DNA of 55,924 bases from positions 1 through 55,924 of the forward strand of contig JABITN010000248.1 of assembly GCA_018700525.1 (NCBI GenBank), written 5' to 3'. Below the pieces are notes generated by a model. The model was not told the origin of the DNA. It was given only the letters and a program-made list of their open reading frames with translations, and made no database searches. Of the stretch, positions 37,812 through 44,100 are shown piece by piece; position 1 is the stretch's first letter, and each line of letters starts with the position of its first letter. Origin of the DNA: Opitutales bacterium. Its GTDB lineage: Bacteria > Verrucomicrobiota > Verrucomicrobiia > Opitutales > Opitutaceae. A program made the translations under genes and the position numbers.

Positions 37812-38387
37812 GGTAGAGTCAGACAACTAGATCTGGGAGTTACTATAGGAGGTTCGGAAACAAAGTGGGACGTCTATCCTGCTACTGAAACACGAGCCGA
37901 AAAATCTTGCGTACCCATTGAATGAATTCGTCTGACTTTTATCGACGGCCCAAAACAGTTTAACTTTTTCCACCGTATGCAGTTAGATCCGAGCGGCTAT
38001 CCATTAAATGCTTTGGTCGACTCCTACTTCTAATCATAAGATCCCGCTAGCGCAGATAGCCCCGGATCCAAACATCACCTCACTTGAAGCATACGGACAG
38101 CACATTCGCTAGAGGCTATTAATTATAGCCCGCCTGAGTCGTTGAAGGGGGTTTTGCCGATCGAATTGCGGATTTCGATTCGAGTAATACCCTAAGGCTA
38201 TTTCGAAATCAGGTACCGAACTTTGCGACACTTGAATCGGGAAACGATGAAACAATCGAAATTCAGCGAAAAGGACGGGTATTGTGCATTAACTGACTTA
38301 TTTAACAGTCCAATGCTCGATTTCAATCAGCTTGGACTGAGCGCCTTTACCATTGCCCTGCTACTTTTTTCTCAGCAGCTTTTTCGC
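37812..38387. other. 576-bp intergenic region without recognised gene
   Basis: Scanned on both strands: no frame with coding character, no tRNA and no strong hairpin. The reading frame of the following gene is open upstream from 38223, but the residues before 38388 do not resemble its family, so I treat this part as leader or spacer. Confidence 0.4.
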
Positions 38388-38975
38388 ATGTCCAACTCGC
38401 TATCCTTGAACGCTTTTCTCGTAAAAGAACATGTCGGTATTTTCAAAGCCGCGAACAACTTCGATATCTACGACCCGCAATCAGGTCGGATTATCCTCGA
38501 ATGCCGCGAAGAGCGCCTTGGTTTGTTCACCAAGATACTTCGCTTCACCGACTACAAAAAACACACCCCTTTTCACATCGAAATCCGAGAGCCTAACGGC
38601 AAGACGCTTATCCATATTAAACGCGGCATCTCGCTCTTTCTTTCAAAAGTTGCCGTACACGACGAGAACGATTCGCCGCTTGGCAGTTTTAAGCAGAAGT
38701 TTCTTTCGATTGGCGGCAAATTCGATGTCGTCGATTCCAACGACCAATTGCTTTGTCAGCTCAAAGGTAAATGGACTGGTTGGAATTTCTCCTTCGGCCT
38801 CGAGAACGTGGAATTCGGTCACGTATCCAAAGAATGGAACGGACTAGGAAAAGAGCTATTCACCAGTGCCGACAACTACATGCTCACGATCGACGAAAGC
38901 CTCGAGGCTGATCACCCATTGCGAAAACTCATCATGGCTGCAGTCATGTGCATCGATATGGTCCTTAAGGAGTGA
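38388..38975 (+). CDS. LURP-one-related / scramblase-like family protein
   Basis: A 195-residue protein starting at MSNSLSLNAFLVKEHVGIFK. The twelve-stranded tubby-like fold of LURP-one/scramblase proteins is suggested by alternating short strands: NNFDIYDPQSGRIILECRE, FHIEIREPNGKTLIHIKRG, KVAVHDENDSPLGSFKQK and FDVVDSNDQLLCQLKGKW, with the hydrophobic C-terminal helix KLIMAAVMCIDMVL. The family is widespread, binds lipids or acts at membranes, and has no defined bacterial function. A longer in-frame start at 38223 is possible but adds sequence without family resemblance. Confidence 0.75.
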   Translation: MSNSLSLNAFLVKEHVGIFKAANNFDIYDPQSGRIILECREERLGLFTKILRFTDYKKHTPFHIEIREPNGKTLIHIKRGISLFLSKVAVHDENDSPLGSFKQKFLSIGGKFDVVDSNDQLLCQLKGKWTGWNFSFGLENVEFGHVSKEWNGLGKELFTSADNYMLTIDESLEADHPLRKLIMAAVMCIDMVLKE

Positions 38976-40237: not shown

Positions 40238-40356
40238 TTACGGCAAATCCGAGCTGAGTTTTGTAAATGTTCCTATGGGAATCCCCTATAGCCCGACGCG
40301 AGCTTGAAAATTTGATCGCTTCCAGTGCACCCTTCCCTTCAACATTCCTAGCAGCC

Positions 40357-41115
40357 ATGAAAAAGAAACTCCTACTCGCTACTTCCTTGATCGCCCTATC
40401 GCTTTTTCCGGCTTTTGCCGCCGAGGACAACCAAATCGCCGAAAGCCAGCAAAAGTGGATCGCCAACTACCAAAAGCAGGCAAACGTTCCGAAACCGGAG
40501 AGCATGTTATTAAACACCTCTCCTGAACCGAGCTTGAACAAAGACTTCGTCAGTCTATACAATGGCAAAAACCTGAACGGTTGGACTCCATACGGCGGCC
40601 ACTGCGCATTCGAAGCGAAAGGCGACGTAATCGTCGGTACGACCATACATGGATCTCCCAGTACCTATCTCTCCACTATCAAGGACGACTACGCCGATTT
40701 TATTTTCACTGCCGAGTTGAAATGGGAAATCGACGGCAACACCGGTTTCATGTTCCGGGGGCAAGTCAAGGTGGATGCCAAAGGTAAGCAAACGGTCTTT
40801 GGCCCTCAGGCCGAAATGGAAGCCGATTCGAAAAAACGTTTCTGGTCGGGTGGCATCTACGGACAATCATGCGGCGGTTGGTACTATCCGCTTTGGCTTA
40901 ACGCCCACGAAAAAGCCCGTAATGCGGTGAAATACGACGGATGGAATCGCATCACCGTAGAATCTATAGGCAATCTCTCAAAGACCTGGATCAACGGGGT
41001 ACCTGCTGCACAATGGAAAAACGACGAATATTTAAGAGGCTTTTTCAGCCTTCAAATCCACTCAGGCAAAGAAGGCTCTGTTCTCTTTCGCAACATTAAG
41101 GTCAAAGAGCTCTAG
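40357..41115 (+). CDS. DUF1080 (3-keto-disaccharide hydrolase-type) secreted protein
   Basis: A 252-residue exported protein starting at MKKKLLLATSLIALSLFPAFA (signal peptide). The domain begins FVSLYNGKNLNGWTPYGG and shows the family markers VIVGTTIHGSP, FIFTAELKWEIDGNTGFMFRG and the closing GFFSLQIHSGKEGSVLFRNIKVKEL. DUF1080 is a jelly-roll fold, shown in some members to cleave 3-keto-glycosides made by Gfo/Idh enzymes. The window has four Gfo/Idh genes but none adjacent, so any shared pathway is inference. Divergent from the helicase gene. Confidence 0.88.
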   Translation: MKKKLLLATSLIALSLFPAFAAEDNQIAESQQKWIANYQKQANVPKPESMLLNTSPEPSLNKDFVSLYNGKNLNGWTPYGGHCAFEAKGDVIVGTTIHGSPSTYLSTIKDDYADFIFTAELKWEIDGNTGFMFRGQVKVDAKGKQTVFGPQAEMEADSKKRFWSGGIYGQSCGGWYYPLWLNAHEKARNAVKYDGWNRITVESIGNLSKTWINGVPAAQWKNDEYLRGFFSLQIHSGKEGSVLFRNIKVKEL

Positions 41116-41199: not shown

Positions 41200-41895
41200 G
41201 TGTTTCCTGATTACGCCTGTATCAGAGAGGTCGGCAGTTTCGAGGAGCTCGTTTCGACGCCTTTCGCCAACCGCGTCAATGCCCATTGCTGGGTACGATC
41301 CCTGGCCGGAGATTTCAACGAGATCGTGAATCGCCTCGATATTCGCGATGAAATCGCAACACTCGAAGGTGAAGCGTTGCAGGACCTTGAATTGAGCGAT
41401 TCCGGCAAGATTGCCCGCGACGCTTTGATCGAAGATCAACGTCTTCTCAGCGAATTCGGACTCTCCCCGATGCTGGATTGCATCCCCGCCTATCCCCGCG
41501 ATCCCGATGCAGGCGCCGTGCCGACCGACGTATACTCCTATCACGTTGACAGCGCGACTGCCGAGGCTGACACCTACCTTTGCAGCTACAACGAAGCCTC
41601 ATCGGAGGGTCTTCGAAACGAAGACGCGCTGCGACGCATCGACATTCCCGAAACGCGAGCCGCCTTGCTCGACCAATACGGAGGAAAAGACGACACCGGT
41701 TTCCTCGCCTACCTGAAAGACAATTTCTTAGATCTCCACTACATGCCAATACTCAAAGCCAAGCCCTACACCTTCGGCCTCGGCAATCTCTGGCGAATAG
41801 CAACTCAATACCCTGGAAGTCCCGTGCCACCCTGTATCCATCGCGCCCCCACGACCTCTCCGGGTCGACCTTCGAGATTGCTGCTTATAAGTTGA
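41200..41895 (+). CDS. Fe(II)/2-oxoglutarate oxygenase-like protein (DUF1826-like)
   Basis: A 231-residue protein with a GTG start immediately after an in-frame TAA at 41197; there is no ATG alternative in frame. H115-x-D117 (VYSYHVDSAT), H214 (PPCIHRAPTTSPG) and R226 (SRLLLIS) are arranged like the HxD...H...R facial triad and 2-oxoglutarate arginine of non-heme iron oxygenases. GNLWRIATQYPGSPVPPCIH is the most conserved-looking block. I cannot place it in a named family with certainty; it resembles DUF1826-type sequences. It sits 90 bp upstream of, and on the same strand as, the ferritin-like/ATP-grasp fusion gene, so the two may work together. Confidence 0.6.
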   Translation: MFPDYACIREVGSFEELVSTPFANRVNAHCWVRSLAGDFNEIVNRLDIRDEIATLEGEALQDLELSDSGKIARDALIEDQRLLSEFGLSPMLDCIPAYPRDPDAGAVPTDVYSYHVDSATAEADTYLCSYNEASSEGLRNEDALRRIDIPETRAALLDQYGGKDDTGFLAYLKDNFLDLHYMPILKAKPYTFGLGNLWRIATQYPGSPVPPCIHRAPTTSPGRPSRLLLIS

Positions 41896-41985
41896 TAGGT
41901 TCGAACGATTCAGCAAGTCAGGGCTGAAGGTATAGCTCGACTGGTAGGCAAGCTGGTCTACCGTAATCATCCGATAAGGGTATAA

Positions 41986-44100
41986 ATGACGATACAACTC
42001 CAGGATTTCGCAAAACAGATACTATTCGGAACGACCATCGAGGAAAAACTGAGCTTTCCTCGTGAGGAGATTGTCGATACCGATCCTGGGTCAGCGATCA
42101 AGACCCCTCGCCACCTCTCTCGCCCTGCCCACCTGTCGCTTCGGGAAAACGGAGTCAAAGCAACCCATCCCAGCAATGCCAAATTGGTCGATGAAAAGGA
42201 ACGCGGTCGATTGCTTCATTTTTTTGGTAACCATGAATTGCTGGCAACCGAACTGATGGCTCTGGTTCTGCTGAAGTTCCCCGATGCTCCGGCCAGTTTT
42301 CGTCGAGGCGTACTGGAGACCCTCAAAGAAGAGCAAATCCATACCCAGCTTTATATCAATCGAATGAAGCAGTGCGGGATCGAATTCGGCGAGCTTCCAT
42401 TGAGTGATTATTTTTGGAAAAGCGTTTCTTCGATGGAGGATCCATTAGACTATGTGACCCGGCTTTCGCTCACCTTCGAACAAGCCAATCTCGATTACTC
42501 GCGTGAATATAAATCTATATTCGAAAAAGTCGGCGACCCATCCACGGCAAACATTCTAGACAAAATTTATCGTGACGAAATAGAGCATGTCGGTTTCGGC
42601 TTAAAGTGGTTTCGACGCTGGAAAGCGTCTGGAAAGTCCGATTGGGAAGCCTATCGCGATCGGTTGACTTTTCCGCTCTCTCCCGCGCGGGCAAAAGGAA
42701 ATCATTTCAATACGGAAGGACGTGCTAAAACTGGGCTCCACCCGGACTTCATTAGCGACCTTCGAATATTCCAACAATCACGAGGACGAACCCCATCGAT
42801 ATTCTGGTTTAATCCGGACTCTGAAACCTACGCTGCTCGTAATTCGAGCGAAGGTTTAACGCCTGGATCCTCCACCGTACAAAACGATTTGGAGTTCCTG
42901 CCCGCGTATCTCTCGAAAAAAGACGATCTCCTTGTTATGAAAAGGCAGCCGTCTCAGGAATTCTTGCGCCAAATCCAGAATTTCGGGTTTCATTTGCCGG
43001 AGATTCTGACAACCGACCCGAATTCGAAAGTTTCCACAGCACCAAAGCTCTCTCGAAAAATAGGCGATCTACGCCCTTGGGCCTGGACGCCTGACAGTGT
43101 ATCGTTTTTCGAAAAGACATTTGAACTGGTAACGCGTCCCATCAGTTCAACCACGCTTTGGAATGACAAAAAGAAACTACTGTTTTCAAAGTCATGGAGC
43201 TTGAACTGGGGCAAGCAATTTGCCGCTGAATCGCTAGTCAATGACTGGATCGCTCCAGCCGAAGTCTATGGGCAATCCGCTGAAAGCCTTGAAGCAGTCA
43301 CCGAGTTGCGCAACCGCTTCGCTGAATCAGGATACCGAAACATCGTCTGCAAAGCTCCCTTCGGAACAGCCGCAAACGGTATCCGTTGTTTACCTGCCGA
43401 CGAAGAAATGAGCTCAGAATTTCTTGCATGGATTACAGGCATTTTCAAAACACAAGGTTCCGTGATCGTCGAACCATGGCTAGAGCGCGTATTCGATTTT
43501 TCCTTGCAACTGGAAATGCCCGGCAAAGAATTGAAAACGATAGCGTTCACCCGACTCGCAAACAACGCGCGTGGCCAGTTCAAAGGGATCGTAACCAATG
43601 CCTTTTGCAAAGGCTTGGCCCCAGAGATCGTTCGTTTTTTGATGAAGCGAATCGAAGGACGCCCAAGAGTCTACCATTGGTATGAAGAAACGGTGGTCCC
43701 TCGTTTATCCGTGGCCCTCCAAAAATCTGAATTCAAAGGGCCACTGGGAATCGACGCATTTGTCTATAGCGATTTATCGGGAAACCTTCGTCTCAAAACA
43801 ATCGTCGAGATTAATCCTCGCTACACGATGGGACGAGTCGCCCACGAACTTGGAGAACACAACGCAGCTACCTCAATCGGCTATTTCCAAATCCTTACAC
43901 GATCTCAAATTCGAAAAACAAAAACGCCGCGTTTCTCCGATTTCGCCGAGAACCTGACAAGGCAACACCCCGTAGCACTTACCAACGAAACGAAACCTCG
44001 TATAGTCACTGGTTCGTTCCCCCTAATCGATCCGACCACTGCCGAACAGTTCATGGCCATTTACCATGTACGAAAAAGAATAGACGAACTTCCTATTTAG
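41986..44100 (+). CDS. DUF455 ferritin-like di-iron domain fused to ATP-grasp domain
   Basis: A 704-residue cytoplasmic protein with no signal or membrane segment. Residues about 70-215 are a DUF455/MiaE-like four-helix bundle with a full di-iron ligand set: E84 or E89 (GNHELLATELMAL), E116-x-x-H119 (KEEQIHTQ), E165 (LTFEQANLDY) and E198-x-x-H201 (RDEIEHVGFG). Residues about 420-650 look like an ATP-grasp ligase: YRNIVCKAPFGTAANG (nucleotide lysine), GSVIVEPWLERVFDFS, LGIDAFVYSDLSG and IVEINPRYTMGRVAHEL (metal-binding E/N). The middle segment is unassigned. An oxidase joined to a carboxylate-amine ligase suggests synthesis of a modified small molecule, but no product is known to me. Confidence 0.75.
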   Translation: MTIQLQDFAKQILFGTTIEEKLSFPREEIVDTDPGSAIKTPRHLSRPAHLSLRENGVKATHPSNAKLVDEKERGRLLHFFGNHELLATELMALVLLKFPDAPASFRRGVLETLKEEQIHTQLYINRMKQCGIEFGELPLSDYFWKSVSSMEDPLDYVTRLSLTFEQANLDYSREYKSIFEKVGDPSTANILDKIYRDEIEHVGFGLKWFRRWKASGKSDWEAYRDRLTFPLSPARAKGNHFNTEGRAKTGLHPDFISDLRIFQQSRGRTPSIFWFNPDSETYAARNSSEGLTPGSSTVQNDLEFLPAYLSKKDDLLVMKRQPSQEFLRQIQNFGFHLPEILTTDPNSKVSTAPKLSRKIGDLRPWAWTPDSVSFFEKTFELVTRPISSTTLWNDKKKLLFSKSWSLNWGKQFAAESLVNDWIAPAEVYGQSAESLEAVTELRNRFAESGYRNIVCKAPFGTAANGIRCLPADEEMSSEFLAWITGIFKTQGSVIVEPWLERVFDFSLQLEMPGKELKTIAFTRLANNARGQFKGIVTNAFCKGLAPEIVRFLMKRIEGRPRVYHWYEETVVPRLSVALQKSEFKGPLGIDAFVYSDLSGNLRLKTIVEINPRYTMGRVAHELGEHNAATSIGYFQILTRSQIRKTKTPRFSDFAENLTRQHPVALTNETKPRIVTGSFPLIDPTTAEQFMAIYHVRKRIDELPI

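What the first reader, a model, noticed from the sequence alone, without database searches (positions are those of the whole stretch)
41200..44100. Possible new two-gene pathway: Fe/2OG oxygenase-like protein plus di-iron/ATP-grasp fusion
A non-heme-iron oxygenase-like protein is followed on the same strand by a protein joining a MiaE/DUF455 di-iron bundle to an ATP-grasp ligase. Two different oxygen-using centres and a carboxylate-amine ligase together look like a small biosynthetic or RNA/peptide-modifying system. I know of no characterised pathway with this composition, making it the best candidate for an undescribed system in the window.
Basis: partly seen in the sequence, partly recalled or inferred. 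Interest (0 to 1): 0.65.

Follow-up and report, generated by a model that had tools for sequence, protein, structure and literature searches.

The report
Iron oxygenase fused to amide ligase
A bacterial protein joins a probable oxygen-using di-iron enzyme to an ATP-driven bond-forming enzyme in one chain; it looks real and active, but the neighbouring gene is probably not its partner and the product is unknown.

Summary
Both genes are real. Gene 2 (41986-44100, 704 aa) is a two-domain enzyme: an N-terminal DUF455 ferritin-like domain with an intact di-iron ligand set, and a C-terminal ATP-grasp ligase whose nearest solved folds are amino-acid and peptide ligases (3wvr, 8ynd, BesA, LdmS). Di-iron ligands are kept in 80 of 80 named homologues, the ATP-site residues in 78 of 80. 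The ligase half exists alone in Bacteroidota and DUF455 alone in Proteobacteria. Gene 1 (41200-41895) is a divergent DUF1826 protein with the HxD...H...R pattern of Fe/2OG oxygenases, invariant in 30 of 30; its fold could not be confirmed.

The two-gene pathway is not supported. Of 22 sampled genomes with the fusion, 4 have gene 1 and 2 have it nearby, both in one genus. In a second, partly overlapping sample, 4 of 80 loci have it within 3.5 kb. Co-occurrence is not significant (p = 0.12), and the gene upstream of the fusion keeps changing.

Best reading: the fusion acts alone as a bifunctional enzyme that makes an oxidised dipeptide or small amide. Di-iron oxygenase plus ATP-grasp ligase is a known theme, with heme-oxygenase-like proteins encoded separately. 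A DUF455-ligase single chain is a new variant.

The parts
41986..44100 (+). Fusion gene: DUF455 di-iron domain plus ATP-grasp ligase, 704 aa, ATG start
   Evidence: ORF; full-length homologues in 21 other genomes of 387 sampled and in 80 named loci kept of 458 relatives found
42109..42753 (+). DUF455 ferritin-like domain (residues 42-256)
   Evidence: PF04305 E 1.6e-45, 156 bits, cut-off 34.3; 22 of 22 homologues match
42235..42588 (+). Di-iron ligand set E84, E116-x2-H119, E165, E198-x2-H201
   Evidence: Invariant in 22 of 22, 80 of 80, and in 4 of 4 stand-alone DUF455 proteins aligned
42793..44097 (+). ATP-grasp ligase domain (residues 270-704)
   Evidence: Fold match 3wvr Z 27.5, 8ynd 25.6, 8yi6 BesA 23.6, 7r8q 23.4; homologous to a stand-alone Bacteroidota protein, hhalign 99.9%, E 2.1e-31
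43189..43821 (+). ATP-site residues K402, K456, E496, D504, D590, E608, N610, R612
   Evidence: Invariant in 22 of 22; all intact in 78 of 80 (L098 is broken in this region, L120 has E496Q)
41200..41895 (+). Gene 1: divergent DUF1826 protein, Fe/2OG-like motif; probably not a functional part of the fusion system
   Evidence: DUF1826 16.4 bits, cut-off 22; full-length homologue of an Acinetobacter protein that passes the cut-off
41542..41550 (+). Gene 1 HxD motif (H115, D117)
   Evidence: Invariant in 30 of 30
41839..41877 (+). Gene 1 distal H214 and R226
   Evidence: Invariant in 30 of 30

Best explanation
The 704-residue protein is a self-contained bifunctional enzyme. Shown by sequence and predicted fold: an N-terminal DUF455 ferritin-like domain with a complete carboxylate/histidine di-iron ligand set, joined to a complete ATP-grasp ligase closest in fold to the 3wvr/8ynd/BesA/LdmS group of amino-acid and peptide ligases. 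Inferred: the ligase activates a carboxylate as acyl phosphate and couples it to an amine, giving a dipeptide or small amide; the di-iron domain uses O2 to hydroxylate, desaturate or otherwise oxidise the substrate or the product. Inferred: no operon partner is needed. Gene 1 is a separate DUF1826-family protein, probably an Fe/2OG oxygenase, that lies upstream in one lineage (Pelagicoccus and relatives).
For: DUF455 E 1.6e-45. Di-iron ligands invariant in 22 of 22 and 80 of 80 and in 4 stand-alone DUF455 proteins. Model pLDDT 89.4, pTM 0.84. ATP-grasp fold Z 23-27 to peptide and amino-acid ligases, against 19.4 and below for the other ATP-grasp enzymes listed. LdmS (Asp-Met ligase) NCBIfam model hit by the Bacteroidota stand-alone homologue at E 8.4e-8 and by 6 of 22 fusion proteins, best 5.1e-4. 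The two halves occur separately elsewhere. Genes just upstream of the fusion vary: VIT1 transporter, M90 peptidase, DUF1643, lactonase, amine oxidase, EPSP synthase.
Against: No substrate, product or metal is shown. DUF455's profile gives only sub-threshold PDB hits (best E 0.025), first to encapsulated ferritins, then aldehyde decarbonylase, bacterioferritin and MiaE, so oxygenase chemistry is not shown. The window protein itself does not hit the LdmS model, and all hits are far below its equivalog cut-off. The ligase profile A4 finds no PDB ligase by sequence; the full-length profile finds LdmS (7r8p) only at E 0.16. Lack of a cluster is unusual for a natural-product pathway. For gene 1, one paper links the DUF1826 domain to predicted succinylglutamate desuccinylases and suggests zinc dependence (PMC5786701, passage), which does not fit an Fe/2OG oxygenase.
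Confidence: 0.45

Rival explanations
1. One reading: gene 1 (Fe/2OG-like) and the fusion act in sequence on one substrate in an operon.
For: Same strand, 90 bp apart in the window. Gene 1 lies upstream of the fusion on the same strand in G223 and in L084, L087, L088 and L102, with other genes between, so proximity has lasted in one lineage.
Against: 18 of 22 fusion genomes lack gene 1; G240 and G327 have both on different contigs; co-occurrence 4 observed against 1.9 expected, Fisher p 0.12 (0.41 without the window genome). 76 of 80 named loci show no gene 1 in the DNA held, though 10 of the 80 carry under 1.5 kb upstream. Genes between the two vary.
Confidence: 0.1
2. RNA-modifying enzyme: a MiaE-like oxygenase domain hydroxylates a tRNA base and the ligase attaches an amino acid or amine to a carboxylate on it.
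For: DUF455 is weakly related to MiaE (17.6 bits for the Sinorhizobium protein; MiaE 8fhc E 0.29). The gene has no conserved cluster. In one search a DEAD-box helicase gene lies within 450 bp in 9 of 73 loci and a release-factor-3-like gene at 1.9-6.5 kb in 7 (both named by eye from the sequence, not by a family search).
Against: MiaE similarity is below cut-off. The ligase fold group acts on free amino acids and small carboxylates (titles; recalled). No RNA-binding domain among the Pfam hits of 22 members. Patchy distribution, 22 of 387.
Confidence: 0.15
3. The DUF455 half is a ferroxidase or iron/oxygen sensor, not an oxygenase, and tunes the ligase or stores iron.
For: Best sub-threshold sequence hits are encapsulated ferritins (TIGR04535 in 10 of 22, best 1.3e-4; EncFtn-like in 8 of 22, best 0.0026). 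A VIT1-type transporter gene directly precedes the fusion in L082, L088 and L096 (clustered; Pfam run on the L082 copy).
Against: VIT1 linkage was seen in that lineage only; the six-ligand E/ExxH/E/ExxH set is common to oxygenases as well (recalled).
Confidence: 0.2

Closest known systems
LdmS, L-aspartate-L-methionine ligase (SAOUHSC_02373; PDB 7r8p/7r8q; name from PMC12235713, passage)
   Same: ATP-grasp fold over the whole C-terminal half (Z 23.4); weak sequence match of relatives to its NCBIfam model
   Different: 11-12% identity; far below the equivalog cut-off; no fused di-iron domain; substrate unknown here
ATP-grasp protein 3wvq/3wvr (PGM1 of pheganomycin synthesis, name recalled) and Streptomyces ATP-grasp peptide ligase 8ynd
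   Same: Closest folds (Z 27.5 and 25.6); PreAtp-grasp Pfam domain echoed at E 0.0023
   Different: 13-14% identity; the solved chains are about 410-430 residues, without a DUF455 part
Di-iron oxygenase plus ATP-grasp ligase pathways (mangotoxin MboA with MboC/MboD; BesC/BesA, BesC recalled)
   Same: Same pairing of O2-using di-iron enzyme and amino-acid ligase (PMC13185094, passages seen)
   Different: Those oxygenases have the heme-oxygenase-like fold and are separate proteins in gene clusters; here the domain is ferritin-like DUF455, fused, and without a conserved cluster
DUF455 (PF04305) stand-alone proteins of Alphaproteobacteria
   Same: Same domain and same six ligands (4 aligned)
   Different: About 275-286 aa, no ligase; next to peroxiredoxin genes in 2 of 4 annotated records (Sinorhizobium, Sphingomonas), not in Thioclava or Azospirillum
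DUF1826 proteins (Acinetobacter; Zur-linked in some Proteobacteria)
   Same: Gene 1 is homologous over its full length (41% identity; 100% hhalign probability)
   Different: Gene 1 itself is under the Pfam cut-off; no Zur-type box found upstream in 30 loci

Membership tests
DUF455 (PF04305) | Pfam score above curated cut-off | tested here: met
   156 bits against 34.3
Ferritin-like di-iron protein | E...ExxH...E...ExxH ligand set | tested here: met
   22 of 22 and 80 of 80 homologues
Ferritin-like di-iron protein | Binds two irons and reacts with O2 | not testable with these tools
   needs protein
MiaE (PF06175) | Pfam score above cut-off | tested here: not met
   No hit at E <= 0.1 for the fusion or its 21 homologues; 17.6 bits against 27 for a stand-alone DUF455 protein
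ATP-grasp superfamily | ATP-grasp fold over the domain | tested here: met
   Predicted model, Z 27.5, 374 residues aligned
ATP-grasp superfamily | ATP and Mg binding residues conserved | tested here: met
   22 of 22; 78 of 80 complete; residue roles assigned from recall
LdmS equivalog (NF047900) | Score above equivalog cut-off (475 bits) | tested here: not met
   Window protein not hit; 6 of 22 homologues hit, best E 5.1e-4; 31.4 bits for the Bacteroidota relative
DUF1826 (PF08856), gene 1 | Pfam score above cut-off | tested here: not met
   16.4 bits against 22; but 29 of 30 aligned proteins match at E <= 0.1, best 6e-8
DUF1826 (PF08856), gene 1 | Homology over full length to an accepted member | tested here: met
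   Acinetobacter protein, 28.2 bits, aligned end to end
Fe(II)/2-oxoglutarate oxygenase, gene 1 | HxD...H triad and distal R | tested here: met
   30 of 30
Fe(II)/2-oxoglutarate oxygenase, gene 1 | Double-stranded beta-helix fold | tested here: inconclusive
   Model pLDDT 67.8, under 50 over 109-125, 191-218 and 224-231, where the motif residues lie
Two-gene operon with gene 1 | Conserved adjacency across relatives | tested here: not met
   2 of 22 sampled genomes; 4 of 80 named loci within 3.5 kb

The most novel reading that the evidence does not exclude
A free-standing, cluster-free enzyme class in Verrucomicrobiota in which a ferritin-like DUF455 di-iron oxygenase is covalently joined to an LdmS/PGM1-type amino-acid ligase, so that one polypeptide oxidises and couples amino acids. 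It would give a biochemical role to DUF455 and to the unnamed stand-alone ligase family of Bacteroidota.
Probability: 0.35. Interest if true: 0.6.

Novelty: new variant of a known kind. Interest (0 to 1): 0.38.

Why it matters
DUF455 is still named a protein of unknown function in the Pfam copy used. A fusion to a ligase of a known reaction type is a good clue to its substrate class (amino-acid-like carboxylates), and one purified protein would test both halves. It also points to stand-alone ligases in Bacteroidota (two seen here; the one scanned passes no Pfam cut-off).

Tried and rejected
Two-gene operon: rejected as general, because adjacency is limited to one lineage. Conserved gene cluster around the fusion: none found. 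One search clustered neighbours of 22 loci; the largest shared neighbour group was in 5 loci (ABC-type ATPases by eye), and its greedy ORF choice hid the fusion gene in 2 loci (L068, L071). One search used 73 loci and kept overlapping ORFs, so the largest groups are shadows of the fusion gene itself. Beyond those it shows ABC-type ATPases (16 loci, scattered distances), a DEAD-box helicase (9 of 73 within 450 bp; L067 and L129 are the same contig) and a release-factor-3-like gene (7 loci); these names are by eye, and I read them as shared ancestry, which I did not test. In one search greedy ORF choice missed gene 1 in L084; one search finds it by tblastn.

Zinc (Zur) or Fur regulation of gene 1: recalled consensus boxes against 30 upstream stretches, no better than shuffles. 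Gene 1 fold: model too poor to search; its profile finds only an irrelevant PDB chain at E 0.22. Ligase profile A4 against the PDB: nothing relevant. Viral structures: mostly generic ATP-grasp proteins. Phage records: no match. PHROGs: no family at E <= 0.1 for either gene. DUF455 in the two Bacteroidota records that hold the lone ligase: none found, but those records are replicons of 0.39 and 1.77 Mb and may not be whole genomes. Family search for DUF1826 in the own genome rang nowhere, controls included, so it says nothing. Promoter and terminator scans: no better than shuffles. The full-length model was dominated by the ligase in fold searches, so the DUF455 half was not searched alone; no DUF455 row was among the 50 shown.

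The genome-contig scan found 458 relatives but kept 80, so the wider taxonomic range is not known here.
Full report
What is there. Two genes lie on the + strand: 41200-41895 (231 aa, GTG start) and 41986-44100 (704 aa, ATG start), 90 bp apart. The window lies in a 4.8 Mb draft genome. The closest named relatives of gene 2 are Opitutaceae, Opitutales and Pelagicoccus, so it is most likely from that part of Verrucomicrobiota (inference).

Gene 2. Pfam finds DUF455 at residues 42-256 (E 1.6e-45). The rest passes no Pfam cut-off. An alignment of 22 full-length homologues (A1) shows an invariant E84, E116-x2-H119, E165, E198-x2-H201, the six-ligand pattern of ferritin-like di-iron proteins (pattern recalled). 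The same residues are present in four stand-alone DUF455 proteins of Alphaproteobacteria. In the 80 named loci, which overlap in part with those 22, the six ligands are kept in 80 of 80. AlphaFold gives a confident model (pLDDT 89.4, pTM 0.84). Its C-terminal part (270-704) matches ATP-grasp enzymes: 3wvr Z 27.5, 8ynd 25.6, BesA 8yi6 23.6, LdmS 7r8q 23.4, with the other ATP-grasp enzymes listed at 19.4 and below. ATP-site residues K402, K456, E496, D504, D590, E608, N610 and R612 are invariant in 22 of 22. They are complete in 78 of 80 named loci; L098 is broken in this region and L120 has E496Q. The role of each ATP-site residue is assigned from recall of the superfamily.

The modules exist apart. 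A tblastn search of plasmid records with gene 2 found 15 records. In two Bacteroidota records (Parabacteroides, Prevotella) only the C-terminal half matches, in proteins of 402 and 369 aa. hhalign gives 99.9% probability and E 2.1e-31 over nearly the whole Parabacteroides protein. That protein matches the LdmS (L-aspartate-L-methionine ligase) NCBIfam model at E 8.4e-8, though far below its equivalog cut-off. Six of 22 fusion proteins also touch this model, best E 5.1e-4; the window's own protein does not. The other 13 records match only the N-terminal half. Of the four annotated ones that I opened, two (Sinorhizobium, Sphingomonas) have the gene directly after a peroxiredoxin gene and two (Thioclava, Azospirillum) do not.

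Gene 1. The window protein scores 16.4 bits against DUF1826 (cut-off 22). Of 30 aligned proteins, 29 match DUF1826 at E <= 0.1, best 6e-8. An Acinetobacter protein annotated DUF1826 that passes the cut-off aligns end to end with the family. H115-x-D117, H214 and R226 are invariant in 30 of 30, spaced like the metal triad and 2OG arginine of Fe/2OG oxygenases (recalled). The model is too poor (pLDDT 67.8, lowest around the motif) to test the fold. DUF1826 genes lie in zinc-regulated gene clusters in some Proteobacteria (PMC2770081, one passage). A Francisella study lists a DUF1826 gene among RNA-Seq hits of its Zur work and says the domain is found in predicted succinylglutamate desuccinylases that may be zinc dependent (PMC5786701, one passage); that speaks against the Fe/2OG reading. 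I found no Zur-like box upstream of 30 gene 1 loci, and within about 1.5 kb no neighbour is shared by more than 2 of 29 loci.

Are they a pair? In 387 sampled genomes of the phylum, 22 (window included) have the full fusion; five more have only weak partial matches that I dropped. Gene 1 is in 34, plus one genome with a 32-residue match that I dropped. Both are in 4: the window genome, G223, G240 and G327; in the last two they are on different contigs. Expected by chance: 1.9; Fisher p 0.12, or 0.41 without the window genome. In 80 named loci, gene 1 is present in the DNA held for 4 (L084, L087, L088, L102), always upstream on the same strand at 1.0 to 3.5 kb; 10 of the 80 have under 1.5 kb of upstream DNA and 28 have under 7.9 kb. 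In L088 a VIT1-type transporter gene lies between; in G223 (L063) a short ORF whose end resembles the start of VIT1 (below cut-off); in L087 and L102 a lactonase gene; in L084 several genes (for VIT1 and lactonase, Pfam was run on one full-length copy of each group).

Surroundings of the fusion. It often follows another gene closely on the same strand, but that gene keeps changing: VIT1 transporter, M90 peptidase, DUF1643, lactonase, amine oxidase, EPSP synthase. I found no neighbour conserved across the sets examined (22 loci, 73); the strongest close neighbour was a DEAD-box helicase gene within 450 bp in 9 of 73. The fusion therefore most likely works without a dedicated operon.

How it most likely works (inferred). 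The ligase half activates a carboxylate with ATP and joins it to an amine, as LdmS, 3wvr-type and BesA enzymes do (recalled). The DUF455 half uses O2 at a di-iron centre on the substrate or product. The alternative that DUF455 is a ferroxidase or sensor is open: its profile's best, sub-threshold, PDB hits are encapsulated ferritins, then aldehyde decarbonylase, with MiaE lower. An RNA-modifying role rests on a weak MiaE resemblance and some neighbours, and is less likely.

What is known. [quoted passage not shown] Fe/2OG oxygenase plus ATP-grasp ligase makes E-64 in fungi (PMC12568646, abstract and outline). No paper in the library holds both 'DUF455' and 'ATP-grasp' or 'ATP-grasp', 'MiaE' and 'ferritin' together. 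Of the 15 papers naming DUF455 I saw titles and abstract starts, and of one a passage on fold assignment (PMC4520260); I cannot exclude that one of the others gives a function. What looks new is the single chain, the ferritin-like rather than heme-oxygenase-like domain, and the lack of a cluster.

Verdict. Observation confirmed; two-gene pathway not supported; fusion enzyme real, active-looking and not described in what I searched. New variant of a known kind, moderate interest.

Noticed in passing
L162:1390-3443 (contig C163 of the window's own genome): A second DUF455 match (52 bits) in the same genome is the C-terminal part of a 448-aa protein that directly follows a PhyH (Fe/2OG) dioxygenase gene: another Fe/2OG plus DUF455 neighbour pair.
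   Followed up: partly
L163:7992-9200 and L164:7986-9095: Stand-alone Bacteroidota homologues of the ligase half; the one scanned (L163) has no Pfam family above cut-off and is weakly similar to the Asp-Met ligase LdmS.
   Followed up: partly
L056, about 97 and 147 bp upstream of the gene 1 homologue: Two perfect 9-1-9 palindromes, of the size of Fur-family operators (recalled), in 1 of 30 gene 1 upstream regions.
   Followed up: no
L067, L103, L111, L121, L123, L129, L133, L137, L154: DEAD-box helicase gene (named by eye) within 450 bp of the fusion in 9 of 73 loci; L067 and L129 are the same contig.
   Followed up: partly
L082, L088, L096 (VIT1 gene just upstream of the fusion); L063:6352-6756: A VIT1-type transporter gene precedes the fusion in several relatives; in L063 only a short ORF with a VIT1-like end is seen.
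   Followed up: partly
window 38223-38975: A scramblase-family protein (PF03803, E 1.2e-17), a family better known from eukaryotes (recalled).
   Followed up: no
window 40267-41115: A 3-keto-disaccharide hydrolase domain protein lies just upstream of gene 1 on the same strand.
   Followed up: no
L166 and L167: Stand-alone DUF455 genes directly follow peroxiredoxin genes in two of four annotated alphaproteobacterial records, a possible clue to DUF455 function.
   Followed up: no
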